A stretch of 56,633 nucleotides of DNA, taken from contig JAPPLB010000012.1 of assembly GCA_028819575.1 (NCBI GenBank), forward strand, positions 1 through 56,633, given 5' to 3'. The notes beneath the pieces are model-generated. The model had not been told where the DNA came from. It saw only the letters and a list, made by a program, of their open reading frames with translations, and made no database searches. Position 1 is the first letter of the stretch. Each line of letters opens with the position of its first letter. Shown piece by piece: positions 3,168 through 28,437 of the stretch. The DNA comes from Bryobacterales bacterium (lineage in GTDB: Bacteria > Acidobacteriota > Terriglobia > Bryobacterales > UBA6623). A program made the position numbers and the translations under genes.

Positions 3168-3270
3168 ACGGATTCTGCTCGACAAGAGGAGGACGAACGG
3201 GCACCCACAAGTATATCAAGCCCTGCTCCGTGTCGAATCGGCGTTGTTCCTTGTGGCGCCTCTCGATTTC

Positions 3271-3414
3271 GAAAAGCCGTGATTCGTGTCTCGTGTCTCG
3301 AGAAAAACCTTAAAGGCCATGTTGCGCACGCCTTTTTCCTCCGCCCGGCTCGCGCTTCGTCCTGACGACCCTCTCACGCACTTCGCCCCGATATGTGGTG
3401 TGAAATGCAGGCTA
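3271..3414 (+). repeat. Family A element, internal and right part
   Basis: It contains the internal GTGATTCGTGTCTCGTG tract, then the CCTCCGCCCGGCTCGCG and CTCTCACGCACTTCGC blocks. It ends in a slightly degraded right terminus GTGGTGTGAAATGCAGGCTA. No clear left terminus is visible. Confidence 0.75.
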
Positions 3415-3481
3415 GAAACTTCGGGGGCTTCTCCCGCCTTGTCGAACTCATCGTCAACCGCTTTGTCCTGACCCTATTGGA

Positions 3482-5617: not shown

Positions 5618-5633
5618 GGCCTACAGCGGATCT

Positions 5634-5664
5634 TAGCAGTGCTTGGGGAAAGTCACGCAGGCGG
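5634..5664 (+). repeat. Family B element, left-end fragment
   Basis: TAGCAGTGCTTGGGGAAAGTCACGCAGGCGG matches in part the first 31 bases of family B (compare 41795 and 56326). It lies between the DUF255 start and the stop of the next gene. The rest of the element is missing. Confidence 0.55.
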
Positions 5665-5666
5665 CT

Positions 5667-6884
5667 CTACCAGTCAACGACCGAGCCGTCATCCGGATCG
5701 AACCTCGGCCGGTACTCTCTGGGCTCGCCCACCTGCGCCATCAGCTTGTCTTCGTCGACGGTGATCCCGAGGCCCGGATCAGTCAGCAGAGGCCGGTGGC
5801 CGTTGCGAACCGGCGGCATCGGCTTGGCGAGCAGATCCATGTACTCGTTGTCGCCGCGTTCCTGAATGAGAAAATTCGGAATGGATGCCGCCACCTGAAA
5901 ACTCGCCGCCAGCGAACACGGCCCTTGCGGGTTGTGAGGCGCCAGAGGCGAGTAGTATGCCTCGGCCATGCCCGCTATGATCTTCAGCTCGGTGATGCCG
6001 CCGGCGTAGCAGACATCCGGTTGAAGAATAGTCGCCGCCCGCTTTTCAAGGATCTCCTTGAAACCCCATTTCGTGAAGATCCTCTCACCGGTGGCGATCG
6101 GGATGTGTGTCTTGCGCGCCAACTCCGCCATGATGTCGACGTTGAGCGCCTGGATGATCTCTTCGTAGAACCACGGGTTGTAGGGCTCGAGCGCCTTCAT
6201 CAGAAGAAGCGCCGTCGGCGGCTGGACGGCGCCGTGGAAGTCCAGACCGATATCCACCTCGTCTCCGTACTTGTCACGGAGAGCCTTGAAGCGTTCAACG
6301 ACCTCGTCGACGAACTTCTGGCCCTCGATGTACTTGATGGCCTGCCGTTCTTCGCCTCGCGGACCGGTCTTCATGGCAGTGACGCCGGTTTCTTCGCTGA
6401 TGCGGCCGTACACTCGGACCCGGTCGCGCGTCGGACCGCCGAGAAGCTTGTAGACGGGGACACCGTAGACCTTGCCCTTGATATCCCACAGCGCCTGATC
6501 GATCCCGCTCGTGATCGCTGTCTTGATCGGACCTCCTCGGTAGAACGCTCCACGGTGAATTGCCTGCCAGTGGTGAACGACACGGCAGGGGTCCTGCCCG
6601 ATGAGATAGTCGCCCACTTCCAACGCGCCGGCGGCGCAGGCCTTGGCGTCGTCCTTGAGCATTTCCCCCCATCCGACGATTCCGGCGTCTGTCGAGACCT
6701 TCACGAAGACCCACGAGTTCTTCAACACGAAGGCGTCAATCCCGGTGACCTTGATACTGTCGTTCGGACCCACCGCAGCCGCATCGGTTCGCTCGGCGGT
6801 GAACAGGGCGTCGAGACCGACCAGCGCTCCTGCGCCCGCCAGACCGCGAAGCCAGGAACGACGGTTCATGCGAAAACGTGACAT
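5667..6884 (-). CDS. Exported MR/MLE enzyme, D-galactonate dehydratase-like
   Basis: A 405-residue MR/MLE enzyme. The APHNPQGP block near the catalytic His is a hallmark of the D-galactonate/gluconate dehydratase subgroup, which converts an aldonate to its 2-keto-3-deoxy form. Metal-site segments are visible as GLDFHGAV (Asp), YEEIIQ (Glu) and ATGERIF (Glu). The N-terminus is MNRRSWLRGLAGAGALVG, a clear twin-arginine leader ending near DAAA, so the folded enzyme is probably exported. That is unusual for this enzyme class. The start at 6884 is supported by AGGAGG nine bases upstream. The exact aldonate substrate is uncertain. It is separated from the ceramidase-like gene by a family A palindrome. 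Confidence 0.88.
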   Translation of the reverse strand: MSRFRMNRRSWLRGLAGAGALVGLDALFTAERTDAAAVGPNDSIKVTGIDAFVLKNSWVFVKVSTDAGIVGWGEMLKDDAKACAAGALEVGDYLIGQDPCRVVHHWQAIHRGAFYRGGPIKTAITSGIDQALWDIKGKVYGVPVYKLLGGPTRDRVRVYGRISEETGVTAMKTGPRGEERQAIKYIEGQKFVDEVVERFKALRDKYGDEVDIGLDFHGAVQPPTALLLMKALEPYNPWFYEEIIQALNVDIMAELARKTHIPIATGERIFTKWGFKEILEKRAATILQPDVCYAGGITELKIIAGMAEAYYSPLAPHNPQGPCSLAASFQVAASIPNFLIQERGDNEYMDLLAKPMPPVRNGHRPLLTDPGLGITVDEDKLMAQVGEPREYRPRFDPDDGSVVDW

Positions 6885-8669: not shown

Positions 8670-8852
8670 TAACCTGCTTTTCTCACCACCCGACGGCCGA
8701 AGCACGCCATACGGCCGCCAGGACTTCGTTGCGTTTGCTTGCCGTGCTCAACGTACTGGTCAAGTACGCCTGCGCGCGCCAAGCGGCGCGCGCCTCGTCC
8801 TGACGGCCCTCTCACGCACTTCGCCTCGCCACGTGGTGAGAAAAGCAGGTTA
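8670..8852 (+). repeat. Family A element, intact type copy (183 bp)
   Basis: The best-preserved copy. The outermost 20 bases, TAACCTGCTTTTCTCACCAC, are exactly the reverse complement of the last 20. The interior carries GACGGCCGAAGCACGC, the CTTCGTTGCG..TTGCTTGCCGTGCTC block, a GTACTGGTCAAGTAC imperfect palindrome and the CTCTCACGCACTTCGCC block. Both ends carry TA, as for an IS630/mariner-type target duplication. There is no ORF of its own. The remaining 8473-8669 and 8853-8994 show no convincing gene. Confidence 0.85.
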
Positions 8853-8994
8853 GAATCGGAGGTCCTTTTCGGGTTTGCTTGCTTTCACGTTCAGGAACCT
8901 CCTGCACCGGGAATCGAACAAGGGGGATCGAAGACGATTGCTGCGAGAGAGAATCAGATGCCGATTTCAGTTGCTTTCGTGGCCGCTCGCTCCC

Positions 8995-9732
8995 ATGGCG
9001 GACTTTCGCAAGCCGATGCAGTCGCTTCCGTTGCGAGAAGGCGCCAAGCGGACAAGATACCCTTTCCGCCTGCTGCGCTACTGGTGGGTGTACCAGGGAA
9101 TCCTCGATGAGACTCACCGCCTGGGCCGGGGGCCGACCATTGTGGACGTCGGCTCCGAAATCGGATTGCTGAGGAGCCTTGCGCCGCAGGTATCCGGCGC
9201 CCACTGGATCGGACTGGACCGCAACGTCGGCAATCAGCACGTCGCGGTTGCCGGGTACGACGAACTTCACGAATGCAATCTCGAGCAGTCCATACCGCTC
9301 GCCGACGATTCGGCTGACATCATCGTCTGCTCCCATATCCTCGAGCACCTCAGGAACCCGGAAAACGCACTCGGCGAAGCCATCCGTGCTCTGAAACCCG
9401 GCGGAGTCCTGCTGGTGGGCTCTCCTGTGCTGTGGAGGCCCGTGGCGGCGTACTATCAGCGGCGGTACAACCGTGAACTGCAAACGGGCAAACGGCAGCT
9501 TGGGCAGCATGTCACCGCCTTCCATCCGAAAATGTGGAAACGGCTGGCCGCCCGGCTCGGTCTCGAAGTAGAGATTTTCGCCGGCTCGCACATCCTTCGC
9601 TGGACCGGGAGCCGTCTGGAAAACCACCAGGCCTGGGTCCGCCTCAATCAGTTTCTGGCGGCCATCTTCCCGGCTTTCGGCAACGAAGTCTGCATTCAGC
9701 TTCGCACGCCATCCGGCGATAAGACACCTTAG
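8995..9732 (+). CDS. Class I SAM-dependent methyltransferase
   Basis: A Rossmann-fold methyltransferase of the Methyltransf_11 type. The SAM-binding stretch is TIVDVGSEIGLL, followed by the acidic end of beta-2 (GLDRNVG). It also has ADDSADIIVCSHILEHL (motif II/III, typical of methyltransferases acting on small molecules or lipids) and ALKPGGVLLVGSP. The start is uncertain. I took the ATG at 8995; a TTG at 8875 would add 40 residues, and an ATG at 9016 is also possible. The chain is about 245 residues from the chosen start. The substrate is unknown. It stands alone just downstream of the intact family A element and converges on the malate synthase gene. Confidence 0.8.
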   Translation: MADFRKPMQSLPLREGAKRTRYPFRLLRYWWVYQGILDETHRLGRGPTIVDVGSEIGLLRSLAPQVSGAHWIGLDRNVGNQHVAVAGYDELHECNLEQSIPLADDSADIIVCSHILEHLRNPENALGEAIRALKPGGVLLVGSPVLWRPVAAYYQRRYNRELQTGKRQLGQHVTAFHPKMWKRLAARLGLEVEIFAGSHILRWTGSRLENHQAWVRLNQFLAAIFPAFGNEVCIQLRTPSGDKTP

Positions 9733-9846
9733 CCTGCAGCGCTCTGCCCGAGCGGGTCGCGGCCGGTCCCGTTTTTATTCTTCGGAGTCTTCTTCGTTAC
9801 GCGAACCGGGTCGTGCCGAGCCGCGGCGCGGCGAGAGAAACGAAAG

Positions 9847-11742
9847 CTACCCGGCGGAGAAATCGAGATTTTCCGTAATGCGAATGCCTTCCGAGGAGAA
9901 TCGTTCCAGAAAGCCGCGTGTCCGTTGCTGTGCTGCCGGTTCCTGCTCGACGCCCAGGTTGACGTTGAGCAAGTCGACCATCCAGGGCGCCTTCTGGGCG
10001 AACTTCACGTACGCATCCACCACCACTCTCGAGACCGGGAGCGTCGTGATTTTCGAGTCGTCGTGGACATCCACGTTCCGGGCCCGCTGAAGCTTCGCGT
10101 ATTCTTCGGAGAGGAGCCGCGAGAACATCTCTTCGGTAAACGGATCGCCTTCGCTTGCGCCGGTTTCCGCATCCGGCGCCGTGAGCACGGCCGTCTTGTG
10201 GAGCCACTCCCAAAGGATGCTGAGCCGGATTTCGCCGGTCGCCATATCTTCCATGAGGTAGAGAACGTCGTCGTTGCCGAAGAAATCCGCAGGCTTGAGG
10301 GCGGCCGCCTGGAATCCCTGTTCGAAGGCGTTGCCGTACTGCACAGCTACGCTGATGAGGTCCCTGGCCCCTCGGATCGTCCGGGGAGCGGGTTCGAGAA
10401 GAACCAAACCGCCGGCATCCGCATCCGTGTAGGACAGAGGCGGGAACGACCGGCCGGCCTGATTCGCCTGGCCGGCCTTTTCCCAAACCGGGCGGATGAT
10501 ATGCACCATCTTCCAGTGGGCCACCCATTTGCCGCTGGCCCCCTCTCTCTGTTCCCGTTCGGCGCCCAGGACCGCCCTCTTCATGCTCTCGGAAACGCCC
10601 GCTTCCGATCCGACCGGGATATTGGGCTCCATGCCGCCTTGCCAGAGCGCGCATCGCCCCTTGCTGTCGGGAGTGTTGGTCGACCGCCGGACCCGGTCTT
10701 CGTAATTCCGCATGTAACCGTAGGTCATGACGACCGCATCGATGTTCGGGTGGATGAAATCCCGATCCCAGGCCATGGCATCCGCGACGCTGTTGATGTA
10801 ATCCCAGCGGCCGGTATTGAATCCGACAAAGCGGTTTCCCAGGGCCGCACGAATCTCCATCAACTGGAACGAGGCCTCGAGCTGCTCGATCAGAACGTAT
10901 GTCTTGACCGCTCCGCTCGACAACCCCAGGCAGGCCTCGACGCCGCTGAGAATGTCATGCCACAGCGCGGCCTCCTCCGCCGTCTGAATCTTCGGCAGGT
11001 AGAGAACGAGGCTGGCGCCCTGTTGCGCCAATGACTCGTGGTTAGCAACGATGTAGAGGACCGCGTCGACCATCGACGCGGAAAACCCGCTGCCGTCGGC
11101 GTTGCGAATGTGACGATCATCCAGATGCAGGCCGCGCGCTCGAAAGATCCTGGTGGTGAAGTCAAGTTGCCGACGCCAGTCCTCGATGATCTTCCGTCCG
11201 AAGAAGCCTTCCGCCCAGGCGTTCATTTCCGCCGCCACAGCCTCGGCCGCCTGTAGAAAGACCGGGTCCTTCGCGAATGCCAAGCGTAGGTTCCGCTGGT
11301 TGTCGAGAGACATCGTCTCGATCTGACCCAGAGCGTCCTCACCATCGAACATCCAGCCGTCAGCCCCGGATAGCAAAGCATACGCAACATTGCGAATGCT
11401 CCTCGCCAACGGCACGCGCGGTTTGGCACCGGGACCGGTCCCTTGCACCCACTGGCGCTTGAGGTCTTCGGGAATCGCGGAACCGGTGAACCGCCCGGCG
11501 CGAGCGTCGGCAACCTTGATCCCGGCCCGGGGGATTGTGGATTCAGGGTCCAGAAAACGGATCCTTTCACCCTGCCGAGCCCGCCGACGGCGGCGTTCCA
11601 ATCGGGCTTGCATCAGAGCCTTGCGATCACTGTCAAGCCCGGCCAACTCGGCCAAGACCGAAAGAGCTTTCGGCGTCACCACGTCGGCGTACCGGTCCTG
11701 TACTCCCGCCCTGATCTCGAACACATCGGATATCGTCTTCAT
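9847..11742 (-). CDS. Malate synthase (AceB-type)
   Basis: This enzyme condenses glyoxylate with acetyl-CoA to give malate in the glyoxylate cycle. Residues 132-137 (FDGEDA), 284-290 (LIEQLEA) and 311-315 (GRWDY) match the AceB catalytic core, including the Mg-binding acidic residues and the glyoxylate-binding Arg region. GASGKWVAHWKMV matches the conserved CoA-side segment. At 631 residues it is about 100 longer than the classical A-form, with an expanded N-terminal half and helical C-terminal extension. I chose ATG 11742 (MKTISDVFEI) because everything further upstream belongs to a neighbouring IS630 remnant. No isocitrate lyase gene is in the window. The promoter may lie inside the IS remnant about 50 bp upstream. 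Confidence 0.88.
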   Translation of the reverse strand: MKTISDVFEIRAGVQDRYADVVTPKALSVLAELAGLDSDRKALMQARLERRRRRARQGERIRFLDPESTIPRAGIKVADARAGRFTGSAIPEDLKRQWVQGTGPGAKPRVPLARSIRNVAYALLSGADGWMFDGEDALGQIETMSLDNQRNLRLAFAKDPVFLQAAEAVAAEMNAWAEGFFGRKIIEDWRRQLDFTTRIFRARGLHLDDRHIRNADGSGFSASMVDAVLYIVANHESLAQQGASLVLYLPKIQTAEEAALWHDILSGVEACLGLSSGAVKTYVLIEQLEASFQLMEIRAALGNRFVGFNTGRWDYINSVADAMAWDRDFIHPNIDAVVMTYGYMRNYEDRVRRSTNTPDSKGRCALWQGGMEPNIPVGSEAGVSESMKRAVLGAEREQREGASGKWVAHWKMVHIIRPVWEKAGQANQAGRSFPPLSYTDADAGGLVLLEPAPRTIRGARDLISVAVQYGNAFEQGFQAAALKPADFFGNDDVLYLMEDMATGEIRLSILWEWLHKTAVLTAPDAETGASEGDPFTEEMFSRLLSEEYAKLQRARNVDVHDDSKITTLPVSRVVVDAYVKFAQKAPWMVDLLNVNLGVEQEPAAQQRTRGFLERFSSEGIRITENLDFSAG

Positions 11743-11790
11743 CACCCTAAGACTACGAAAAACTCCGTCCGGCTGCTCATCTGTTACATC

Positions 11791-12630
11791 TCCGGCCAAC
11801 GTCTCGGCGCCGGGCGCAAGCCGCTGCTGAACGCCGTGCAGAGGGAACGGCTGGTATCGCTGTTGCTGGAAGGCCCTGAGGCGCACGGCTTCCCGACGCC
11901 GCTGTGGAGTTGTCCGCAGGTGGCTCGCCTTATCGGAGACGAGTTCGGGGTCGATTACCACGAAGGTCACGTCTGGAATATCCTGCGGGGGGATGTGGGC
12001 TGGAGCCCTCAACGTCCGGTCGGCAAGGCACGGGAACGCCACGAAGAGGCGATCCGCACTTGGAAGCGCAAGACTTGGCCGGGCCTAAAAAAAACCCGTA
12101 CCGAAGGGCACACCATAGTCTTCATCGACGAAAGCGGATTGAGTCAGAAGCCGCACCGCTGCCGCAGTTGGGCTCCGCGCGGGAAGACGCCCATCCTACA
12201 GTTCAACTTCAACTGGCAGAAACTTTCCGTCTAAGCGGGGCTGACGCTGCGCAACTTCTACTTCCGGCTCTATCCCGGCGCAATCCGCCAAGCCGAGGTA
12301 ATCGACTTTCTCAAAGCGCTCGTGCGTCACATCGAGAAACCGTTGCTGATCGTCTGGGATCAATTGACAGCCCACCTCAGCCGCTTGATGCGGGAGTTCA
12401 TCGAACTCTCCGAGGGGCACATCGTGACGGAGTACTTGTCGGCTTATGCCCCGGAGTTGAATCCGGTGGAATACATCTGGTCGTACTCGAAGCAGCACGA
12501 GCTGCCGAATGTTTGTCCCAAAGACTACGGGCAGTTGAGCCGGCGCGCTCGCCAGACGCTACGCCGCATGCAACGCGAACCGCGCTTAGTCACGGCCTTC
12601 TGGAAACAGTCTTCTGTTTGCTTCGATTGA
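11791..12630 (+). pseudogene. IS630-family transposase, 5'-truncated and with an in-frame stop
   Basis: This encodes a DDE transposase of the IS630 (Tc1/mariner superfamily) type, which inserts at TA. All three catalytic blocks are present: FIDESG (first Asp), IVWDQL (second Asp) and LNPVEYIWS (Glu). The upstream helix-turn-helix part starts only at GAGRKPLLNAVQRERL, so the first 40-50 residues are missing. A TAA at 12232-12234 interrupts the frame just after WQKLSV, while the same frame continues cleanly to the normal end at 12630. The gene is therefore dead twice over. It abuts the 5' end of malate synthase and forms the left border of the AT-rich kinase/TPR segment. Confidence 0.85.
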
Positions 12631-12730
12631 CGGGGTCTTATGCGTGACTTAATAATCCAGTGATGCCAGCAACAGATGAGACAGTACACCTGAACCGACT
12701 CGGGCTTCTCGCGCACCCGGCAACGGTAGC

Positions 12731-12871
12731 GACGAACTCAACCACATCGGCGGCTATGTCGATCCCATCGTGACCAATCGTTTGCGGATTCTTGCGACTC
12801 AGGAAAACACTCCTGTTCAAGACTTGCTCGAGGAAGGGCTGGAACTGAACTTTTGGATGTGGCAGGCTTGA
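12731..12871 (+). pseudogene. Ribbon-helix-helix antitoxin-like gene remnant
   Basis: An open stretch ending TGA at 12869-12871 reads GGYVDPIVTNRLRILATQ, then ENTPVQDLLEEGLELNF. This pattern (RLRILA..E.TTVQ.LL.EAL) is that of plasmid-type ribbon-helix-helix antitoxins. No ATG start is in frame and the C-terminus ends abruptly, so it is probably a fragment. It lies between the IS630 remnant and the kinase gene. The rest of 12631-12950 shows only the IS630 3' tail. Recognition rests on sequence feel alone. Confidence 0.45.
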
Positions 12872-12950
12872 CTTTGACACTTTTCATCACATCCTCCATT
12901 CCAGTCGTCAATTCTGAAAACGTTATAGTATCAATTCTAGGGGGTGTTTG

Positions 12951-14003
12951 ATGACTGCTGCCTCGAAGCTCATCGGTCTCACTCTGAATGATAACTGGCG
13001 GGTCGTCGAACACATCAAACGCCCTCCAGCCGGCACGGGTGGAACGTTTTCTCACAGTTATTTAGCGAAGAAGGGTGATAGAATGGCGTTCGTAAAGGCC
13101 TTCGACTTTTCAAGCGCCTTCCAGCCAGGTGCGAATACCCTTGAAATTCTCAGTCTACTCACAGCTTCCTATGAACATGAACGCGATGTGCTTGAGCACT
13201 GCCGTGGGCGGCGTCTTTCTAATGTTGCAATCGCCATCGGTCATGGTTATATATCCGTTCCCGATATGGGAATCATGGAAGGTCGGGTTTATTACCTTCT
13301 ATTCGAAAAAGCAGACGGAGATATCCGCTGCCAAATGGACGCTGCCTTTGCTTCGGATGATGTTTGGTGCATGTATGCACTTCGACACGTAAGTCTGGGG
13401 CTGTTGCAGATTCACCGGGAATTTATTGCGCATCAAGATCTCAAACCATCCAACGTGTTGTGTTATGGCGCGAAAGAGTTTCGAGTTTCTGATTTCGGTC
13501 GATCTTCTAGACGTAACCAGACGATTTGGCATGACGAACAAAACTTTCCAGGTGATAAAACGTATGCTCCCCCGGAATTGCTTTACGGGTATGTGGTTGC
13601 CGATTTTGTCCCGCGCTGAATTGGTACCGACCTGTATATGCTCGGTAATTTGGCTGCATTCCTTTTTACAGGCGTAAATGTCACCGAGTCCTTAATGGCA
13701 CGTCTTGCCCCACAACATCACTGGACCCGATGGAACGCGACCTATCAAGGTGTATTGCCTTACCTTCAGGAAGTGTTCGGCAGATTTCTGGAAGAACTCG
13801 GACCACGTCTGCAGAACCCCTTTGTTCGGGCAAAAATATTGCCGCTAGTCCAAGAACTGTGTAATCCAGATCTCTCTCTAAGAGGACATCCCAGGGGTCT
13901 CGGACGCCCTAATCAATACTCATTGGAACGCTACGTTTCTCAATTAACAAACACAGTTCAGATGCTCGAAATCAAGACAAAAGCTGAGAGAAGAACGGTA
14001 TGA
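12951..14003 (+). pseudogene. Eukaryotic-like Ser/Thr protein kinase, interrupted by one in-frame TGA
   Basis: A protein kinase domain. The Gly-rich loop is near residues 27-33, the ATP-anchoring Lys at 49 (FVKAFD), the catalytic loop HQDLKPSN at 161-168, DFG at 181-183 and the APE-like APPE at 206-209. After residue 222 the frame meets TGA at 13617-13619 and then continues in the same frame (IGTDLYMLGNLAAFLFTG, a normal kinase C-lobe) to 14003, giving about 350 codons in all. This fits a CGA-to-TGA change. The ATG at 12951 follows a GGGGG Shine-Dalgarno tract. The end overlaps the TPR gene by ATGA, so the two were translationally coupled. Base composition is clearly AT-richer than the flanks. 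Either the gene is dead or a truncated kinase is made. Confidence 0.8.
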
Positions 14004-15505
14004 TCACTTCTCCTTGGACAAGCCGTCGACTATTGATTCCACGGTGGCGTAGTCTCATCATTACCATCGGTGCTAATGAACTAGCGGCGCCGTATCCAAC
14101 CATAGTTTTGAGTGAGACCCCTGTGGTTTCATTTGACTTATTAGAAAAACTGGACTCATGGAGAGACAGTCCAAATGTAATGACAGCAGGTGAATTGGTT
14201 GGTTCTTCTTTGGTCGTAGCCCAAGAGAACAAAGCTGTAGAAGCTGCTCAATTCCTACTGTCCACTGAATCTTCAGCAACAGTTCCCCTGCGCAGGCTAG
14301 CTGCACTTGCATTACTAAGAGCTGGATTGGAGGAACATGTCCCAGTGGGACTGGAACTCAATCCTCAAGTCACTAAGCGCGGCTGGCGTAAGAGGACGCG
14401 GATGTACTCAACGAATGCGTTGGCATGGGTTGAGCTATCACTTCATGATCTGGTAATCGGCAAAAAAGAATCTGCGAAGCGATCCATGCTAGTCGCACTA
14501 CAGCTTGCGCCCACTAATCGCCACGTGCTGCGATCAGCCTCTAGACTGTTTCTTCACCTCGGTGACGCTGAACGAGCTTATGACACAATTGCCGACTGCG
14601 AGTCTATTTCATCAGATCCATGGTTGATTGCAGCCGAACTTTCCATTGCCAATCTTGCTGAGCGCAAGCCCCAAAATTTTGCACGTGGACGTAGTATTGT
14701 TGTGAAAGGAGGACTTGCGCCACGTCAAATTACTGAGCTTGCAGGGGCTATCGGAACGCTGGAACTGGTGGCAGGTCACCGCAGGAAGGCTCGTAAGTAT
14801 TTTCGCCAAAGTCTCATTGACCCGACTGGGAATGCTCTAGCTCAAGCAGAATGGGCATCACCTTTGTTTGGTTTTGAACTTGTTACCGCGCAACACCTAA
14901 ATTCAACTACAGAGGTTGACGAAGCAAAGGTTCTCCATCTCCTTCACAAAGAAAAATTCTCAGAAGTTCCAGATATGTGCCGACAGTGGTCTAACGCAGA
15001 GGGCTATGCCATTCGACCTTATGAAATTGCCTCATCTGCTACTGCTCTTGTTGGAAATCACAGTCGAACAATTGAAATTGTGAGAAAGGGATTGACCATT
15101 AAACCTAACTCAGCAGCTTTGCTCAACAATTATGCATTTGCTCTTTCTCATACAGGGAAACTAAATGAAGCAGAGCATGCCCTAAGAGGTATCCAACGCG
15201 AAAATGAGCTAAATTGGCTGGTAAGCGAAGCGAATCGAGGTCTTTTGGCTATGCGACAAAAAAACCACGTTTTAGGCTTGACCCACTACAAGAGGGCAAT
15301 AAATGGCTTCAGTAAGAAAAAAGATGAACGCTCCGCTAATATTGCACGCATCTATCTTGCGCGGGAGGCCGCCCTGGCGAACATTCCGGAGGCTGAAGCA
15401 CTGATCAAGAATGCCCGTGCAGCAATAAGTCGTCTGAATACTAGCACACATAATCATGTTATTCAGGAGGCGGAACAAGCTTTAATATCTCCTCTCGTGC
15501 TGTAA
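14000..15505 (+). CDS. TPR-repeat protein paired with the kinase
   Basis: A 501-residue, mostly helical protein. TPR-like pairs are visible in the middle (GKKESAKRSMLVALQLAPTN, then a LHLGDAERAYDTIAD helix) and near residues 370-440 (NSAALLNNYAFALSHTGKL, then AEHALRGI). It has no enzymatic motif, signal peptide or membrane segment. Its ATG overlaps the kinase stop (ATGA), so it is the second gene of a two-gene operon. It is likely a scaffold or partner of the kinase, or its sensor. Codon usage (many AAA, AAT, TTA) differs from neighbouring GC-rich genes and suggests transfer. I cannot match it to a named defence or signalling family. Confidence 0.75.
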   Translation: MITSPWTSRRLLIPRWRSLIITIGANELAAPYPTIVLSETPVVSFDLLEKLDSWRDSPNVMTAGELVGSSLVVAQENKAVEAAQFLLSTESSATVPLRRLAALALLRAGLEEHVPVGLELNPQVTKRGWRKRTRMYSTNALAWVELSLHDLVIGKKESAKRSMLVALQLAPTNRHVLRSASRLFLHLGDAERAYDTIADCESISSDPWLIAAELSIANLAERKPQNFARGRSIVVKGGLAPRQITELAGAIGTLELVAGHRRKARKYFRQSLIDPTGNALAQAEWASPLFGFELVTAQHLNSTTEVDEAKVLHLLHKEKFSEVPDMCRQWSNAEGYAIRPYEIASSATALVGNHSRTIEIVRKGLTIKPNSAALLNNYAFALSHTGKLNEAEHALRGIQRENELNWLVSEANRGLLAMRQKNHVLGLTHYKRAINGFSKKKDERSANIARIYLAREAALANIPEAEALIKNARAAISRLNTSTHNHVIQEAEQALISPLVL

Positions 15506-15573
15506 TTAGGCCCGGTAGCCTGCGGTTGCCTCTCGGAGCTTCTGCTCTGCCCCTATTGGAAGAATTGTATCTT

Positions 15574-15684
15574 TTGAGCCGGCGCGCTCGCCATGTGCTG
15601 CGCCGCATGCAACGCAAACCACGCTTGATTACCGCCTTCTGGAAACAGTCTTCTCTTTGCTTCGATTGACGGGGAATTATGCGA
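15574..15684 (+). mobile_element. IS630 3'-end fragment (second copy)
   Basis: About 110 bases match the 3' end of the IS630 gene at 12535-12645 in the same orientation, from TTGAGCCGGCGCGCTCGCC through GAAACAGTCTTCT to the TGA and the tail CGGGG..TTATGCG. The two copies differ by scattered substitutions, so this is an old duplicate. It bounds the kinase/TPR segment on the right. The rest of 15506-15921 has no recognisable gene. Confidence 0.8.
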
Positions 15685-15921
15685 GGATCAATAATTATCG
15701 AACTGATCTCCGTGTCAAGCCATGACTACATCGAAACCTACGCACACTTCGGCTTGAGCAAGCGCCGACATGCCAATCAATGAGAGCAGATGGTTTGCAC
15801 TTGCGGCCGATATCGGACCGCTACTCCTCGTCTGCGGTCAAGTACCGTTAGGGAGCGGCATGCATTGACCTTGCCCTCAAAAGCTGATCCATGGGAAGTA
15901 AGGGTTGCCCGGCGGGCACAT

Positions 15922-18900
15922 CTAGATAAACAGTCTGTAGTCATAGGACGCTGCACCGAAGCGTTGAAGCAGGGAGCCGATTTTTGCGATTTCACCGGAA
16001 GATCCCAACGTGGACGGTAGTTTCGTATAGAGATCGAAGGTGTTCCAGTTCATCTTGGATAGACCAAGGATCTCAGCAGAAAGCTTCTGAAGAGGCGTCG
16101 ACCCAGCATGGCGTCTAATCATAAGGGGCGCCGGGATACGCCTCTTTCCCTGAAAATACTTGCGGTGGGGATTGAGCGCCGTCGTCGCACCGTGGACCCA
16201 GAGCAGCGCGCTGTAAGCATCGAGCTTCATCACCGTGCCGCGCCGGACCGGGAAGTTATCCTCATCGGACGTACCATCAGGTTTCTGAACCGAGGCGACG
16301 TAACGTAGTGCGTGGTCGATCTGGATTTCAAGCATGTCGATGCACCCGATACCGTTCAGGCCGTCGCGGAATCCCTCACGTTCTTCTTTGGTGAAGTGCG
16401 TGCGTTTGTGAATTACGACCCGATCGGGAAGTGTCGTACGGGCATCGAAAAAGAGCTGACGGATAGTTTCACCAACGCGACGCGCATCATCCGCGGACAT
16501 GAAGGGATTGCCACGGCGGATGATCGGGTCCTCGATCTTACTGAGTCGATACTGCAAGCCTTCGCCCCGAGCACTGTAGATATGACTGCATCCCAGAACA
16601 ACGTGGTCGCCTCGCTGAGCATTGTGATCTATGCTGAATCCGAGACCGACAAAAGCTGCGTCATCGGCAAGGTTGTCGAGAACCCACGGTGTGCGCATAC
16701 CCTTGACGTACAGAGCCAGAGATAGCCACCACCAGATACGGCACTGATAGCTGTCCGAAAGCGTATTCTGATTCAGGAACTGCGTGGCAATGCCGCGCTG
16801 GACGCAGTAGGCTTTTACGAAATTATGGAGGTCGAAGCTTTCGGATTCAGTGCTGTAGCTGCGGAAGGACTGCCAACGATCGGGAATGTAGATCAGCACG
16901 ACATCGGGCGCATGCGAAGCCTGCAGCGACTCAATGCTCCGGTTAATGAGGCGTGCCGCGTCGATTGCTCCCTGAACCGGATTGTGCCTGGAAGGTTCGG
17001 GACAAGTAATCCATCCGACTGAACCCGGCGCAGGCAATTCGGCCGGCAGCCCATAGGCCATCTGGAATCCAGGGTAATCGAGCAGGTAATCCCGCTCCGT
17101 CGAGCTGGGGGTGAATACTCGATGAATGGATTGAAGATAGGAATGAAGCGTTTGAGCTTCAGTTTCTGGACAGACAACGCCGATCCGTAGAGATGATGAA
17201 AGGCCGCGGGAGGTCAGCGGATAATCATAAGGCCGGTGATTCAGGATTCCGCGGATGGGGTGCGTATCCTTGACTGGAGCAGTCCCGGCCTTGTTCGAAA
17301 ACAACAGTGACGGTTCGGCAAGCTGCACGCCACGGTGCTTGATGAGCGACTGCATCCGTTGCGGCACATGCACGCCACGGTTGCCCGACGGTAACTCGAT
17401 TGCAGCGAAAATCGGTGCTCGGCGCACCCGGAACTTAAACGTGGAGCCGGAATTGTGGGGAAACGAAAACACGGCCGTTTGTCCATTGGGAAACAGTATC
17501 TTGCGCCATTTATTGACAGCTTTGTTGAAGGGTTTGTTGTGCTGGTAGCCGAGAATCTTAAGCTTGATCGGGTTGACGACTTCAGGCGGCGGTTCGACCC
17601 CGGTCTGGTCGAACACTCTCAGGGATGGCTTAAGGACAAGATGCTGGACCCCGCCTATGTTCCGCAAGGAAATCCCGGCCGCCTCGTGCACAGAATAGTT
17701 GGTGCTGCCGTGGCGGACCCTGCGAAAGTCTCGGGATCGCCAGAGTAACTTGGTGCCGTCGGTTTCCACACCGGCACTGTCGGCCATTGACCGGACGAGG
17801 GCTTGGCGCATAAGGGAGACAACAGCACCGTCTTCATGGCGTAGGTCTTCTGGGGTGACGGGTGAGCGCTCAATCGAGCCCTTTAAGTTGTCAGTGAAGG
17901 CATCGCGAATATCTTCGATGGTCCCGAGCGCCAGTATTTTTCTCAAAGGCACTGCAACAAGCGGTCGCTCGCCTGCCGTCTCGCGCAGAGAGGCCCAGAC
18001 TCGCTCTGTCGGCCAGAACTTCAGGTCGAACTGTAACACCTCCGTTGGACATTCAATTTCAAAGGCGTTGCTTTTGATGAGCGTGGCATCGGTGAACTGA
18101 GGGATCTGAAAAGACTTGCGGTGGAGCAGGTCTTCCGACGCCAGTGCCGCAATACATTGCCTGGCGGCCTCACGCTTTTCACCATGAATACAATGCAGTG
18201 CAAGGCGCGTCATCAGATCGTCGAACCCGAGTGTCGGCACATAGTAGGCTTGGCGCCCATGATCCCGCGCGTGGCGGATCAGAGAAATCACATGGTCGGG
18301 GTGGTCGCCGTCACTGAACCCGCACCAGAAAAGGCTGCCAGCCCCAGGTGTGGCATAGGCCGCATGTAGGGCATCCATGACGGACCGGTCGCGCCCACTG
18401 TAGCCGACAACGATTAGCGGCGTTGTCCGTGTCTCTTCGATCAGAGCCTTACGGAGCCCTGTCTCCTGAGTCTGAAGCTCTTCAGGCGTGTTCTTCAGCG
18501 CGTCGTAACGATAATCTCCATGCAAGGAGACGCAGAGAAGCTCACCCTGAGATAGCTGACGCGTGAGGCGACGCTGGCTATCGATACCGACCTCAACCGG
18601 AGTCAGGCTAAAGGTCGCGGCGGCACGGGCGACAAGACTGTCGAAATTGGTCGACCAGACAGAGCGAATAAGATTGGCCTCCGCGAGGTGGCAGAGAAGC
18701 TGATAGCCGACATGCGGGCGTGCTTTGCGAACCTTGTTCTGAAAATAGCCGCGCCGGTCTTCTGCGATAGGGAAACACTGCTCAATGAAAAAGCCGTACT
18801 CGTCATGTGCGCCATCTGGCGGAAAGCGGCCCTGCCCGTCGAGCCACTGTTGAATCCTGCGGCGAATGCCGGGCAGGGAAAGCTCAGCAAACTGATCCTC

Positions 18901-19116
18901 GAGGCCGGGGTTGTTGGTGAGAAAAATGCTGCGCTTCCACTCCCAAATGCACGTTTGTGCCGACGGGATACCCGAACTGATCGAGGCACCGGCCCCAACA
19001 AAGACAGATAGCGGTCCGGTCCGCCTGATACCGATTGATCTGACGAAGGCATCGAGCGACAGGTCAAAGACGTCCTCGCTACCTTGTTGCGGAGGCTGAC
19101 TGGCTGCCTGGGTCAT
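15922..19116 (-). CDS. Single-chain SIR2-APAZ-Argonaute (SPARSA-type short pAgo fusion)
   Basis: A 1064-residue fusion. Residues 1-310 form a SIR2 domain with GAGAS at 41-45, GIP at 49-51, TNFD at 156-159, LHG (catalytic His 199) and GYSGRD at 238-243. An APAZ-like region (about 330-620) and MID-PIWI (about 630-1064) follow. In PIWI the usual first catalytic Asp is apparently replaced (VGLGFS) and the RDG-type position reads HKRTHF, so slicing is probably lost, as in short pAgos. In characterised SPARSA systems, guide-directed target recognition switches on SIR2 NADase activity, depleting NAD+ and aborting infection. ATG 19116 has AGGTGG upstream; a TTG nine codons earlier is less likely. Most SPARSA are two genes, so the fused form is the less common one. 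Confidence 0.9.
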   Translation of the reverse strand: MTQAASQPPQQGSEDVFDLSLDAFVRSIGIRRTGPLSVFVGAGASISSGIPSAQTCIWEWKRSIFLTNNPGLEDQFAELSLPGIRRRIQQWLDGQGRFPPDGAHDEYGFFIEQCFPIAEDRRGYFQNKVRKARPHVGYQLLCHLAEANLIRSVWSTNFDSLVARAAATFSLTPVEVGIDSQRRLTRQLSQGELLCVSLHGDYRYDALKNTPEELQTQETGLRKALIEETRTTPLIVVGYSGRDRSVMDALHAAYATPGAGSLFWCGFSDGDHPDHVISLIRHARDHGRQAYYVPTLGFDDLMTRLALHCIHGEKREAARQCIAALASEDLLHRKSFQIPQFTDATLIKSNAFEIECPTEVLQFDLKFWPTERVWASLRETAGERPLVAVPLRKILALGTIEDIRDAFTDNLKGSIERSPVTPEDLRHEDGAVVSLMRQALVRSMADSAGVETDGTKLLWRSRDFRRVRHGSTNYSVHEAAGISLRNIGGVQHLVLKPSLRVFDQTGVEPPPEVVNPIKLKILGYQHNKPFNKAVNKWRKILFPNGQTAVFSFPHNSGSTFKFRVRRAPIFAAIELPSGNRGVHVPQRMQSLIKHRGVQLAEPSLLFSNKAGTAPVKDTHPIRGILNHRPYDYPLTSRGLSSSLRIGVVCPETEAQTLHSYLQSIHRVFTPSSTERDYLLDYPGFQMAYGLPAELPAPGSVGWITCPEPSRHNPVQGAIDAARLINRSIESLQASHAPDVVLIYIPDRWQSFRSYSTESESFDLHNFVKAYCVQRGIATQFLNQNTLSDSYQCRIWWWLSLALYVKGMRTPWVLDNLADDAAFVGLGFSIDHNAQRGDHVVLGCSHIYSARGEGLQYRLSKIEDPIIRRGNPFMSADDARRVGETIRQLFFDARTTLPDRVVIHKRTHFTKEEREGFRDGLNGIGCIDMLEIQIDHALRYVASVQKPDGTSDEDNFPVRRGTVMKLDAYSALLWVHGATTALNPHRKYFQGKRRIPAPLMIRRHAGSTPLQKLSAEILGLSKMNWNTFDLYTKLPSTLGSSGEIAKIGSLLQRFGAASYDYRLFI

Positions 19117-19760
19117 GGCGGGCCCACCTTTGAAACGAAGCAAACGCTGGAGGCCACACGCAATTCTGTCTCGGCGGCCCCCTTTTCATGAAACCACACG
19201 ATCTTCCTGACGGCACGGCGCACCGCTCAAAGCGGCTGAGAACCGATACTCGGGGCCCACTATTAACCAAAATCAGGTGACTGAAGGTCTTACTGAAATT
19301 TCCTGCACAATCCTTAGTGGATCGAACCAGCTCTAGTGCTGCCGAGTACTTGCAGCAGCAGGCCAGGCTATTGAGTTAAGTGGGGAATGATCGCGCACAG
19401 CGAGAAGATCCGGCAGCAGATCAGGGAGTAGGCACGACGCAAACCGAAATGTGAATATGGCCCGAGCCGGTACAGAGTTTATACCTAAAGTCACCTCGAT
19501 GTGCCCCCCGCATTGGCACCTTCAAGTGTCCACACATGTGGCAGGCCTGCTCGCTGTAGGTCCTTTGGCGGGCAAGTCACGAGGCACCTCGCCGGCTACC
19601 ATGTATAACGACTAGCCTGAGGATTCTGCATCTGCGAATTGTCACAGTGCTGCCATCACCATCGACGACAATATGCCACAGTCTCTTTCGCTGCGGCCGA
19701 CGGCTGCACTCGATTTAAGGACATCGATCTGGTGCTCAAACGCAAGCAGGGAGAAGAGCG
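19117..19760. other. Gene-free spacer between SPARSA and HTH gene
   Basis: This divergent region of about 640 bp should hold promoters for both neighbours, but I see no convincing -35/-10 pair. Just before 19761 a short frame ending in TGA at 19762-19764 reads FKDIDLVLKRKQGEER and overlaps the HTH start as ATGA. This may be the tail of a lost toxin gene. The frame has a stop at 19606-19608. Confidence 0.5.
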
Positions 19761-20042
19761 ATGAACAAGAAGAACATCGGCAGTTCGTTCGACAGTTGGC
19801 TGCGTGAAGAGGGCATCCAGGAAGAAGTGACCGCCGGCGCGATCAAGCGCGTGCTGGCCCGGCAGGTGCAGGCCGCGATGGCAGAAGGCGACTTGTCAAA
19901 GGCCGAGATGGCGCGGCGGATGCAAACCAGCCGCTCTCAACTGGACCGTTTGCTGGACCCCGAAAACGAATCCGTCACTTTGTCAACGCTCCAGAAGGCG
20001 GCTGCCGCCATCGGCCGCGAGGTGCGTCTCGAACTGGTCTGA
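19761..20042 (+). CDS. XRE-type helix-turn-helix protein (HigA-like antitoxin or regulator)
   Basis: A 93-residue protein. The helix-turn-helix is around residues 45-75 (LSKAEMARRMQTSRSQLDRL), with the antitoxin-like tail VTLSTLQKAAAAIGREVRLEL. Proteins of this shape are usually the antitoxin of a RelE/HigB-type toxin, with the toxin gene directly upstream. Here only a short overlapping reading frame precedes it, so the toxin appears to be lost. GGGAGAAG six bases before the ATG is a good ribosome site. Its TGA stop coincides with the degraded left end of a family A element. It might now act as an orphan regulator of the adjacent restriction-modification gene; that is inference. Confidence 0.8.
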   Translation: MNKKNIGSSFDSWLREEGIQEEVTAGAIKRVLARQVQAAMAEGDLSKAEMARRMQTSRSQLDRLLDPENESVTLSTLQKAAAAIGREVRLELV

Positions 20043-20095
20043 CCTGCATATCTCAGTAGCTGACGGCCGAAGCACGCGATAAGACCACCTTGACA
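20040..20095 (+). repeat. Family A element, left-end fragment
   Basis: TGACCTGCATATCTCAG then CTGACGGCCGAAGCACGCGATA matches the left terminus and the first interior block of family A, with TA changed to TG at the tip. The tip forms the TGA stop of the HTH gene. The remainder of the element is missing. Confidence 0.6.
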
Positions 20096-20120
20096 GACCC
20101 GTTCGGGGCATCACAACGTC

Positions 20121-20150
20121 TTGCCTTCGAACCGGTTGCCTTCGAACCGG
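20121..20150 (+). repeat. Exact 15-bp tandem duplication
   Basis: TTGCCTTCGAACCGG occurs twice in direct succession, each unit carrying a TTCGAA palindrome. It lies about 70 bp upstream of the restriction-modification gene and could be an operator or simply slippage. Confidence 0.85.
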
Positions 20151-20222
20151 CGGCTTGATTATGTTGTGTTGTCTTTGCCCAAGAAATTAGCGATGGCACC
20201 GCGCTCCATCCAGTGATTGCGC

Positions 20223-23200
20223 ATGACACTTCAAGAAGCCATTTCAAAATTCGGTCTTGAAGCGAAATCAAAGCTTTCAAACCCTGCCGCGAGCGGCGCG
20301 CCCGAGGATCAACTGCGTGCGCCGCTGGATGGTCTTGTCGCGAATCTCGTCGAACTCACTGGGCAGTGGCCCGGTACGGTCGTCGCGGTGGGCGAATCGT
20401 CTCTCGCTGATCTCAAAACGCGACCGGACTACGCCGTTACGCGCAGAAACGCCCTGATCGGTTTCATCGAGGTCAAGGCACCGGGTAAGGGGGCTGACCC
20501 ACGCCGCTTCAGCGACCGGCACGACAAGGAACAGTGGGCTAAGCTTCAGACCCTCCCGAACCTGATCTACACGGATGGCAACGGGTTCAGCCTGTGGCGC
20601 AATGGGGAACTCCAGGGGGAAATCGTTCAGTTGCTGGGCAACGTTGAGACCGCTGGAAAAAAGCTGGCGGCCCCGGATAGCCTTGTTTCTCTGTTCGCCG
20701 ACTTCCTTCTATGGGAACCGCAGCCGCCCCGTTCAGCAGCACAACTCGCAGAGTCCACAGCCCGCCTCTGCCGCCTGCTCCGTGAAGAGGTTACCGAGCA
20801 ATTGAAGCGGGGCTCAGCTTCGCTAACGAACCTCGCGACGGACTGGCGGAAACTGTTGTTTCCGAGCGCAACGGACGAAGCCTTCGCGGATGGCTACGCG
20901 CAGGCGGTCACCTTCGGTCTTCTGATGGCGCGAGCGCGCGACATCACTCTTGCCGATGGTCTTGACCGGGTTGCCCGCGAACTGCGCCAGACCAACACCT
21001 TGGTCGGCGCCGCGCTTCGCCTCCTCACAGACGACGCCGACAACGAGGCGACACTGAAAACGTCGCTCGCAACGCTCACGCGCGTGCTTGACGCCGTTCA
21101 TTGGCCCACGGTCAGCAAAGGCGAGCCGGAAGCTTGGCTGTACTTCTACGAGGAATTCCTGAGCGTCTACGACAACAACCTGCGCAAGAAAACGGGCTCC
21201 TACTACACCCCGCCTGAGGTGGTTCACGCCATGGTTCGGCTGGTCGATGAAGCTCTGCGATCCGACCAGAGGTTCGGTCTATCGGAAGGGTTGGCCTCCT
21301 CGGACGTGACAATCGCCGATCCGGCAACCGGAACCGGTACTTTCCTGCTCGGCGTCTTCCACCGGATCGCAGAGACGACGGAAGCCGATCAGGGACCTGG
21401 GGCCGTTCCCGGAGTGGTTGAAGCGGCCATATCCCGCCTGATCGGATTCGAGATTCAGTTCGGCCCCTTCGCTGTGGCGCAGTTGCGCATCCTCGCAGAG
21501 TTGCAATCGCTCCTCGACAAACCGAACACGACGCCCGCGACGCGGCTTTTTGTGACGGATACGCTCGGCAATCCCTATGTCGAGGAGGAATACCTTCCAC
21601 AGATCCTCTTGCCCCTTGGCGAGTCCCGCAGACGCGCTAACGAAATCAAGCGTCAGGAGAAGATCACCGTCGTCATCGGCAACCCACCCTACAAGGAGAA
21701 GGCGAAGGGCCTGGGCGGTTGGATCGAGAACGGCTCAATGGGTAATGGTGTTCATGCACCGCTCAACCAATGGATGCCACCCGCGGGCTGGAACGTCAGC
21801 GCCCATGCAAAGCATCTGCGCAACCTCTATGTCTATTTCTGGAGATGGGCAACGTGGAAGGTCTTCGGGGACGGCGAACCGTCTCGGATTGAAGGCCGCA
21901 CAACGGACCGGAAGGGAATCGTTGCCTTCATCACCGTTGCGGGCTTCCTGAACGGACCCGGTTTCCAGAAGATGCGCGCCGAACTGCGCCAAGAAGCAGA
22001 CGAGATTTGGGTTATCGACTGTTCACCGGAAGGGCATCAGCCGGACGTGCCGACGCGAATTTTCCAAGACGTACAACAACCTGTTTGCATCGTCATGGCG
22101 CTTCGAAGCACGGATGCGGGTTCTTCCACGCCGGCGCGGGTCCGATACCGTGTTCTGCCGCAGGGACATCGAAACGACAAGTTTGCATCGCTTGGCGAGA
22201 TTGCGCTCGACGACAATGGTTGGACCGAGTGCCCCTCGGACCTCCGCGCCTCTTTCTTCCCCAAGTCCACTGGGGCATGGGCTGAATTTGCCGCCCTGGA
22301 GGACCTGTTTATCTACGATGGCTCCGGCGTCATGCCCGGACGAACCTGGGTCATTGCTCCCGATCGCGCCTCGCTTGAGCGGCGGTGGAAGGCGCTGCAA
22401 TCCGAAGTCGATACCGAGAAAAAGGAGGGACTGTTCCATCCACATCTTCAGGGTGACAAGCACGTCCACAAATCGCTTCGGCGGGGACTCTATGGCCATG
22501 AATTTCGACCCGGTCCTGTTGCTTCGGACACGGGAGCCGTAATTCGACCTGTCCAATACGGCCACCGGTCCTTCGATCGGCAGTGGATCATCCCTGACGG
22601 ACGGATCATCAATCGACCTAATCCGACCCTATGGGAGAACTACTCGAACCATCAGGTCCACATGACGGCGCTGCAAGCACATGCGCTGACGAAGGGACCG
22701 GCGATCACCTTCTCTGCTGCAATACCAGATTTACACCACTACAACGGACGTGGAGGCCGAATATTTCCTCTCTGGGCTGACCGCCAACAACGGACGCCAA
22801 ATCTCAAGGCAGGATTGCTCCGCGAGGTGGCCCAAGCTCTGGGAGTCACCGTCAGCGCACCCGACCTGATGGCGTATTTCGCGGCGGTCGCCGCGCATCC
22901 TGCATACACGGCTCGTTTCCGATCCGACTTAGTCCAACCGGGACTGCGTTTCCCCTTGACCACCGACGCCTCCCTGTTCGCCGAAGCCATTGAGATCGGG
23001 CGAGAGATCATCTGGCTTCACTGCTTCGGCGAGCGTTTTGCCGACCCTGGCGCGGGACGGCCCCATGGCGCGCCACGAATGCGGGAGTATGAGCGCCCCA
23101 TCATCCCCACGGCCGGCGCCATTCCGACGAATCCGGATCGTTTTCCCGACCGGATCGAATACGATGCCGCCGCCCGCCGGCTCAAGATCGGCAGCGGCTT

Positions 23201-23576
23201 CATCGACAACGTACAACCTGCCGTATGGGAGTACGAAGTCTCGGGCAAGCAGGTGCTGGTCCAGTGGTTCAGTTACCGCCGTCTCGACCGTTCCCGGCCG
23301 ATCATCGGCGACCGGCGCCGGCCGTCTGCGCTCGAAAAGATCCAGCCCGCCGGCTGGCTCGCCGAATACACCACGGAACTGATGAACGTTCTCCACGTCC
23401 TTGGCCGCATGGTCGCACTCGAACCGCGCCAAGCCGATCTGCTGAAACGTATCTGCGACGGCCCCCTGCTGAGCGATGACGACCTGCGCACGGTCGGAGC
23501 GTTCGATCAGACCAGTTCCGGACGCCGCAGAGGCACCGACGAACGACAGGGTTTGCTCGAAGAGGTGGAAGGGTAA
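20223..23576 (+). CDS. Type IIG-like restriction enzyme/N6-adenine methyltransferase (single polypeptide)
   Basis: A 1117-residue fusion of nuclease and DNA methylase. Near the N-terminus, RPDYAV and GFIEVKAPG (D69, E83, K85) form a PD-(D/E)XK nuclease core. The gamma-class adenine methylase follows, with KTGSYYTPPEVV near 323-334, SAM motif I DPATGTG at 366-372 and catalytic motif IV NPPY at 487-490. The C-terminal 500 residues are probably target recognition. No helicase motifs are present, which separates it from type ISP enzymes. It would methylate one or both strands of its own site and cut unmodified DNA. I chose the ATG at 20223 over a TTG two codons earlier; the ribosome site is weak. 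It is the last gene of the defence-like island. Confidence 0.88.
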   Translation: MTLQEAISKFGLEAKSKLSNPAASGAPEDQLRAPLDGLVANLVELTGQWPGTVVAVGESSLADLKTRPDYAVTRRNALIGFIEVKAPGKGADPRRFSDRHDKEQWAKLQTLPNLIYTDGNGFSLWRNGELQGEIVQLLGNVETAGKKLAAPDSLVSLFADFLLWEPQPPRSAAQLAESTARLCRLLREEVTEQLKRGSASLTNLATDWRKLLFPSATDEAFADGYAQAVTFGLLMARARDITLADGLDRVARELRQTNTLVGAALRLLTDDADNEATLKTSLATLTRVLDAVHWPTVSKGEPEAWLYFYEEFLSVYDNNLRKKTGSYYTPPEVVHAMVRLVDEALRSDQRFGLSEGLASSDVTIADPATGTGTFLLGVFHRIAETTEADQGPGAVPGVVEAAISRLIGFEIQFGPFAVAQLRILAELQSLLDKPNTTPATRLFVTDTLGNPYVEEEYLPQILLPLGESRRRANEIKRQEKITVVIGNPPYKEKAKGLGGWIENGSMGNGVHAPLNQWMPPAGWNVSAHAKHLRNLYVYFWRWATWKVFGDGEPSRIEGRTTDRKGIVAFITVAGFLNGPGFQKMRAELRQEADEIWVIDCSPEGHQPDVPTRIFQDVQQPVCIVMALRSTDAGSSTPARVRYRVLPQGHRNDKFASLGEIALDDNGWTECPSDLRASFFPKSTGAWAEFAALEDLFIYDGSGVMPGRTWVIAPDRASLERRWKALQSEVDTEKKEGLFHPHLQGDKHVHKSLRRGLYGHEFRPGPVASDTGAVIRPVQYGHRSFDRQWIIPDGRIINRPNPTLWENYSNHQVHMTALQAHALTKGPAITFSAAIPDLHHYNGRGGRIFPLWADRQQRTPNLKAGLLREVAQALGVTVSAPDLMAYFAAVAAHPAYTARFRSDLVQPGLRFPLTTDASLFAEAIEIGREIIWLHCFGERFADPGAGRPHGAPRMREYERPIIPTAGAIPTNPDRFPDRIEYDAAARRLKIGSGFIDNVQPAVWEYEVSGKQVLVQWFSYRRLDRSRPIIGDRRRPSALEKIQPAGWLAEYTTELMNVLHVLGRMVALEPRQADLLKRICDGPLLSDDDLRTVGAFDQTSSGRRRGTDERQGLLEEVEG

Positions 23577-23711
23577 ACGCGGCGCACGGATCGTTGGCAC
23601 GCAACGCCATCGCCACGGCCCACTCCATCACCGTGCTAACGAATCGCTTGTTGCAGAGCCCTGGCGCTACGGCCCGGGCAGGTGTATTCGAAAACTCGCG
23701 GGGGCTCGGAA

Positions 23712-25079: not shown

Positions 25080-25130
25080 GATTCTTTCTCAAGACGATAC
25101 CATTGAAAACCAACGCTGATTCGGGGACAT

Positions 25131-25302: not shown

Positions 25303-25473
25303 CCCTGGGAGCGCGCGGGTGCCCTCTGGGCGCCTGCCCGCCTCTCCGCATGACACGCAGGCAGACGGATGAAAAGCGAACCCGAAACATCGTCCGAATC
25401 AAGCAGCCATGACACCGAACCGGATGTTTCTTGCTCGAATGATCCGCACCGCGCAGCGGGGCGGGGGCAGGAC
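25303..25473 (+). repeat. Repeat C, copy 1
   Basis: About 171 bp running from CCCTGGGAGCGCGCGGGTGC to the TA of the next family A element. It is almost identical to 28438-28609. It includes GAAACATCGTCCGAATCAAG and CCGGATGTTTC, which recall the inverted repeat at 31269-31317. It is non-coding. Confidence 0.85.
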
Positions 25474-28248: not shown

Positions 28249-28437
28249 AACAAGCCGTGATTCGTGTTTCGTGTCTCGTGATTCGTGAAAACCATGGGCG
28301 GAGGACTGGTTCGCTCCAGAAGAAATGTCTGACGGCCTGTGAACACTGACCTGAAACATCCCCTATGCAAGCAGCGTTGACACTAACCCGAAGGGTTCCT
28401 CTTGCACTCTTGTAGGTCCACCCCCGGGCGGAGCAAG
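28249..28437 (+). repeat. Family A interior block, partial
   Basis: It repeats the GTGATTCGTGTTTCGTGTC tract and the GGACTGGTTCGCTCCAGAAG..ATGTCTGACGGCC block of 25131-25302 but lacks the left terminus. It has about 75 extra bases (28363-28437) before repeat C. Confidence 0.7.

What the first reader, a model, noticed from the sequence alone, without database searches (positions are those of the whole stretch)
11791..15684. Kinase/TPR pair bracketed by direct IS630 3' fragments and AT-richer than its flanks
A 110-bp IS630 tail occurs at 12535-12645 and again, same strand, at 15574-15684. Between them lie an RHH antitoxin remnant, a protein kinase gene and a TPR gene that overlap by ATGA. Codons such as AAA, AAT and TTA are frequent there and rare outside. 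The pair sits next to a SPARSA-type gene and a restriction-modification gene. I cannot match kinase plus this TPR protein to a named defence system, so it is the best candidate here for an undescribed two-gene system.
Basis: partly seen in the sequence, partly recalled or inferred. Interest (0 to 1): 0.7.

Follow-up and report, generated by a model that had tools for sequence, protein, structure and literature searches.

The report
Broken copy of candidate kinase–TPR defence
The pair is real and is one copy of a widespread but rare two-gene cassette already catalogued as an unproven phage-defence candidate (PDC-M71); in this genome the kinase gene has a stop codon in its middle, so this copy is probably dead.

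Summary
A 122-bp IS630 tail recurs in direct orientation (86% identity), the DNA between is AT-rich, and it holds a ribbon-helix-helix antitoxin remnant, a Hanks-type kinase and a TPR protein joined by ATGA. First, the kinase frame is cut by an in-frame TGA at 13617-13619, inside the catalytic domain, at a position that is Arg in 90% of relatives. Second, the pair is already named: both kinase halves match PADLOC PDC-M71A and the TPR protein matches PDC-M71B. It is a mobile two-gene module: about 80 further same-strand pairs from some 17 phyla, strongly co-inherited, patchy and rare (13 of 5,426 E. coli; 4 of 396 Acidobacteriota), sometimes beside CBASS, TIR/Pycsar or restriction genes and in a prophage. 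Here it lies in an 11.9-kb block (SIR2-pAgo, Type IIG restriction) that a 95%-identical congener lacks at the same site. Most likely the TPR protein senses or gates the kinase and phosphorylation stops infected cells; that is inference. New lead: in nine loci, at least six lineages, the pair sits directly downstream, same strand, of a class II ribonucleotide reductase gene. Ordinary locally; a modest lead for the family.

The parts
11797..23665 (.). Inserted block (about 11.9 kb) holding IS630, RHH remnant, kinase/TPR, IS630 tail, SIR2-pAgo, HTH gene and Type IIG RM; absent at the orthologous site of same-genus genome G002
   Evidence: blastn: G002 1998-4935 = window 8844-11796 (93%) and G002 4922-6377 = window 23666-25122 (95%), adjacent in G002
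11807..12656 (+). Degenerate IS630 copy (left), with frame breaks
   Evidence: other IS630 copies in G000/G002 begin at window 11807-11809; Pfam HTH_33, DDE_3
12707..12868 (+). Remnant of a ribbon-helix-helix antitoxin-like gene
   Evidence: PF20605 Antitox_RHH 1.9e-9; in-frame stop upstream
12951..13616 (+). Kinase (PDC-M71A), N-terminal part up to residue 222: N-lobe, HxD loop, DFG, APE region
   Evidence: PDC-M71A 2.6e-70, Pkinase 1.7e-12
13617..13619 (+). In-frame TGA stop codon interrupting the kinase, at a position that is Arg in 90% of relatives
13620..14003 (+). Kinase C-lobe remainder in the same frame, up to the natural stop codon
   Evidence: PDC-M71A 1.7e-26, model positions 231-348
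14000..15505 (+). TPR protein (PDC-M71B), 501 aa, intact
   Evidence: PDC-M71B 9.3e-103; AlphaFold2 pLDDT 93.5
15574..15695 (+). IS630 3' tail fragment, direct repeat of 12535-12656
   Evidence: 86% over 122 nt
15922..19143 (-). Fused SIR2 / prokaryotic Argonaute gene, 1073 aa (same island, separate system)
   Evidence: PADLOC pAgo 1360 bits; Aga_SIR2-PNTD1-PNTD2 3.6e-204
19761..20042 (+). HTH regulator (same island)
   Evidence: HTH_26, HTH_37
20217..23576 (+). Type IIG restriction enzyme-methyltransferase (same island)
   Evidence: PADLOC REase_MTase_IIG 1334 bits

Best explanation
A copy of the candidate defence system PDC-M71, carried on an inserted defence block of an Acidobacteriota (order Bryobacterales) genome, with its kinase gene recently broken by a nonsense codon. 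In intact members the TPR protein is most likely the sensing and gating partner: its conserved polar groove and N-terminal RxxxPRW motif would bind the kinase and an infection signal. The released Hanks-type kinase would then phosphorylate host or phage proteins so that the infected cell stops supporting the phage. Shown here: identity, two-gene conservation, co-inheritance, preserved catalytic residues, mobility, premature stop. Inferred: sensing by the TPR protein, kinase activity, targets, abortive outcome, loss of function of this copy.
For: PADLOC hits over nearly the whole of both proteins. 81 locus pairs all on the same strand, 37 with exactly 4 nt overlap. Mirror-distance correlation 0.815 against a maximum of 0.152 in 999 permutations. 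Catalytic K49, E77, H161, D163, K165, N168, D181, G183, D227 invariant in 64 kinases. Predicted kinase (L028, pLDDT 95.5) and TPR folds. Neighbours: SIR2-pAgo and Type IIG RM here; TIR CAP12/Pycsar effector beside the closest relative L028; CBASS cyclase in three neighbour proteins, Type I-III methyltransferases, AbiLi; Pycsar effector on the Deinococcus plasmid; prophage cargo beside spanin and UmuC-like genes in L109. Empty site in G002. dN/dS against L028 is about 0.11 (kinase) and 0.21 (TPR) with no other stop or frameshift, so the break looks recent.
Against: No experiment on any PDC-M71 member was found. Defence-neighbour enrichment is modest: about 10 of 134 neighbour proteins at E 1e-70 (my estimate from the family tally) against none of 93 from control regions not matched by taxon. 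The recurrent ribonucleotide reductase neighbour is not a defence gene. The stop codon could be a sequencing error.
Confidence: 0.6

Rival explanations
1. The pair controls or guards nucleotide supply: the kinase, steered by the TPR protein, acts on ribonucleotide reductase or dNTP pools, either as a regulator or as a defence that starves phage replication of dNTPs.
For: Class II RNR lies directly upstream on the same strand in L030, L046, L049, L088, L051, L054, L103, L143 and L070, with gaps of about 20-460 bp. These are scattered on the kinase tree. In several genomes the adjacent RNR is the only one.
Against: About 80 of 89 loci, including the window, have no RNR nearby; the RNR of the window's genome is on another contig. 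Downstream of nrdJ could simply be an insertion hotspot: in Ensifer the homologous RNR is present without the pair beside it.
Confidence: 0.15
2. A toxin-antitoxin module: the kinase is a growth-stopping toxin and the TPR protein its neutraliser.
For: Tightly overlapping two-gene operon; in the window, L075 (IS3 insertion) and L102 the kinase is broken while the TPR gene is intact, as expected if only the toxin is costly.
Against: The TPR protein is large (about 500 aa) with a conserved groove rather than a small labile antitoxin; kinase comes first; no toxicity data. L103 shows a broken kinase without a recognised TPR gene.
Confidence: 0.13
3. The TGA at 13617 is a sequencing or assembly error, or the cell reads through it, and the local system is intact.
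For: No other disruption in either gene; strong purifying selection in the divergence from L028. The assembly is a fragmented draft in 200 contigs.
Against: The stop lies in otherwise clean sequence and no recoding signal is known; kinase decay is seen in other loci (L075, L088, L094, L102, L103).
Confidence: 0.12

Closest known systems
PDC-M71 (PADLOC defence candidate, M71A kinase + M71B TPR)
   Same: Both genes match over nearly their whole length; two adjacent genes, kinase first, overlapping
   Different: Window kinase is interrupted by a stop codon; PDC-M71 itself is an untested candidate
PD-T4-6 and Stk2 single-gene kinase defences
   Same: Hanks-type kinase domain (weak PADLOC matches, 8.6e-10 and 1.2e-4)
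   Different: Those are single kinases without the M71B TPR partner; far weaker match than to PDC-M71A
Mokosh MkoA
   Same: Kinase domain similarity (3.5e-10)
   Different: MkoA model is 1112 positions long; only its kinase part aligns; no MkoB partner here
HipA-type kinase toxin systems, including DS-6 (PMC13092281)
   Same: Two-gene module with a Ser/Thr kinase and a possible abortive mode
   Different: HipA-type kinase and DUF3037/DUF1829 partner, not a Hanks kinase with a TPR protein

Membership tests
PDC-M71 | M71A-type kinase | tested here: met
   PDLC04780 2.6e-70 (model 7-225/352) and 1.7e-26 (231-348) on the two pieces
PDC-M71 | M71B-type TPR protein directly downstream | tested here: met
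   PDLC04781 9.3e-103, 7-503/515, ATGA overlap
PDC-M71 | Uninterrupted kinase reading frame (needed for function, not for descent) | tested here: not met
   In-frame TGA at 13617-13619; the frame is open in the great majority of relatives. The window copy is therefore filed as a broken copy, not a working system
PDC-M71 | Located with other defence genes | tested here: met
   Same 11.9-kb block as SIR2-pAgo and Type IIG RM
PDC-M71 | Antiphage activity | not testable with these tools
   No published test found; PMC12988326 says most PDCs are unvalidated
Composite transposon bounded by IS630 | Two complete IS copies flanking the cargo | tested here: not met
   Right copy is a 122-bp tail only
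Composite transposon bounded by IS630 | Mobile block ends at the IS copies | tested here: not met
   Left end nearly coincides with IS630 but the block runs to about 23665
Toxin-antitoxin system | Kinase toxic alone and neutralised by the TPR protein | not testable with these tools
   Needs expression assay

The most novel reading that the evidence does not exclude
PDC-M71 is a kinase-based defence that acts through ribonucleotide reductase: the TPR protein senses infection, or disturbance of RNR, and the kinase switches RNR or dNTP supply off, which would explain the repeated placement of the pair directly behind class II RNR genes in unrelated phyla.
Probability: 0.12. Interest if true: 0.8.

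Novelty: new member of a known kind. Interest (0 to 1): 0.35.

Why it matters
It gives a catalogued but apparently untested candidate concrete content: about 80 intact or near-intact copies across phyla, invariant residues to mutate, natural hosts including E. coli and Citrobacter, prophage carriage, and an unexplained link to class II ribonucleotide reductase. The local copy shows kinase loss with an intact TPR gene, as expected for a costly, dispensable defence gene.

Tried and rejected
Composite IS630 transposon: rejected (right end is a fragment; block extends beyond it). Recent IS duplication: rejected (86% identity, many diverged copies). Housekeeping TPR family: weak matches to PilW, PrsT and generic TPR models are below their cut-offs, whereas PDC-M71B matches over its full length. 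A flanking repeat at the island ends: the 14-bp BLAST overlap (11783-11796 / 23666-23679) is too degenerate to call a target-site duplication. Search with the PDC-M71B model in 100 relatives mostly returned ordinary TPR proteins at E about 1e-3 to 1e-8; only G066 was a true member. Phage collection: no TPR match. More RNR cases in 385 and 298 extra genomes: none new, the pair is too rare. Complex prediction could not be run (single chains only). Promoter and terminator scans were at chance level.

Full report
What is there. The repeat and the composition claims hold. The 122-nt repeat at 12535-12656 and 15574-15695 is 86% identical in direct orientation, and the enclosed DNA drops to 0.47-0.49 GC against 0.60-0.62 around it. 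Codon use differs as described. Between the repeats lie a ribbon-helix-helix antitoxin remnant (PF20605, 1.9e-9), a kinase frame and a 501-aa TPR gene overlapping by ATGA. The kinase frame, however, contains an in-frame TGA at 13617-13619. It falls after residue 222, between the APE segment and the alpha-F helix, at a position that is Arg in 90% of 74 relatives. Everything after it, including the invariant D227 and R311, is lost from the product unless the stop is an error or is read through.

What it is. PADLOC-DB 2.0.0 recognises both kinase pieces as PDC-M71A (2.6e-70 and 1.7e-26, contiguous on the model) and the TPR protein as PDC-M71B (9.3e-103). PDC entries are putative defence candidates from a guilt-by-embedding approach, most of them unvalidated (PMC12988326). 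No paper in the held library names PDC-M71, and none was found that tests a kinase-TPR pair of this kind. The library holds no bioRxiv collection and few subscription papers, so a test could exist elsewhere.

The pair elsewhere. A genome scan with a kinase alignment gave 80 loci, and viral contigs gave 2, from roughly 17 bacterial phyla. Own-profile searches found the TPR gene beside the kinase in 81 locus entries (two of them the same Bryobacteraceae locus), always on the same strand, 37 with a 4-nt overlap; the loci without a recognised TPR gene are mostly contig ends. Kinase and TPR distances are strongly correlated (r 0.815; permutation maximum 0.152). The system is rare and patchy: 13 of 5,426 E. 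coli genomes have a kinase match (the one inspected has an intact pair), 4 of 396 Acidobacteriota including this one, 1 of 385 and 2 of 298 in two other groups. The closest relatives are an Acidobacteria MAG (73% kinase identity) and Mesorhizobium (68%), which points to transfer between phyla.

Mobility and context. In the same-genus genome G002 the sequences left of 11796 and right of 23666 are adjacent, so IS630, the pair, SIR2-pAgo, the HTH gene and the Type IIG enzyme are all absent there. Elsewhere the pair neighbours a TIR CAP12/Pycsar effector (L028), CBASS cyclases, restriction-modification genes, TIR and TPR genes in an E. coli chromosome, and a prophage accessory site beside a spanin gene (L109). 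At E 1e-70 about 10 of 134 neighbouring proteins are defence proteins against 0 of 93 control proteins. This is suggestive only: the control is not matched by taxon, some loci are related, and the tool tallies families rather than proteins, so the protein count is my estimate.

Anatomy and mechanism. The kinase family keeps every catalytic residue, and the L028 kinase model has the full bilobal fold (pLDDT 95.5). The TPR protein is predicted as a continuous helical repeat protein (pLDDT 93.5) with generic TPR matches in the PDB. Its most conserved residues are an N-terminal R10/P14/R15/W16 motif, an Arg ladder on one helix (R174, R178, R182), D206-P207-W208, N278, Q282, E308, W330, N377 and Y430. 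By analogy with TPR clamp grooves (own knowledge) this suggests one conserved partner or ligand; that step is inference. The preferred reading is a sensor-gated kinase causing an abortive response.

A new lead. In L030, L046, L049, L088, L051, L054, L103, L143 and L070 the gene directly upstream on the same strand is a class II-type ribonucleotide reductase (for L070 the gene spans a contig break joined by a 77-bp overlap). The first five identified need at least three to four separate origins on the kinase tree, and L070, L103 and L143 add further unrelated lineages. In G493, G494, G496 and G499 the adjacent RNR is the only one found in the genome. With one or two RNR genes among thousands, chance adjacency in so many lineages is very unlikely, and all nine are co-oriented. 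Whether this is an insertion hotspot behind nrdJ or a functional tie is open. The window copy has no RNR nearby.

Verdict. A real, already catalogued candidate defence module; this copy is probably inactivated. The genuinely interesting residue is the RNR association of the family.

Noticed in passing
L030, L046, L049, L088, L051, L054, L103, L143, L070: Class II ribonucleotide reductase gene directly upstream, same strand, of the kinase-TPR pair in nine loci from at least six lineages.
   Followed up: partly
window 25473-25655 and 28344-28636: Dispersed repeats of about 180 bp and 290 bp; the first has dozens of copies at about 92% identity across this genome and its congener G002.
   Followed up: no
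   Followed up: no
L075 10807-11834: An IS3-type element inserted within the kinase gene of another PDC-M71 copy while the TPR gene is intact.
   Followed up: yes
L025, L029, L031, L032, L033: Winged-helix regulator (MarR/IclR-type where named) upstream of the pair in several rhizobial relatives, a possible dedicated regulator.
   Followed up: no
L028 8411-9256 (-): TIR CAP12/Pycsar effector-like gene beside the closest relative of the window pair.
   Followed up: no
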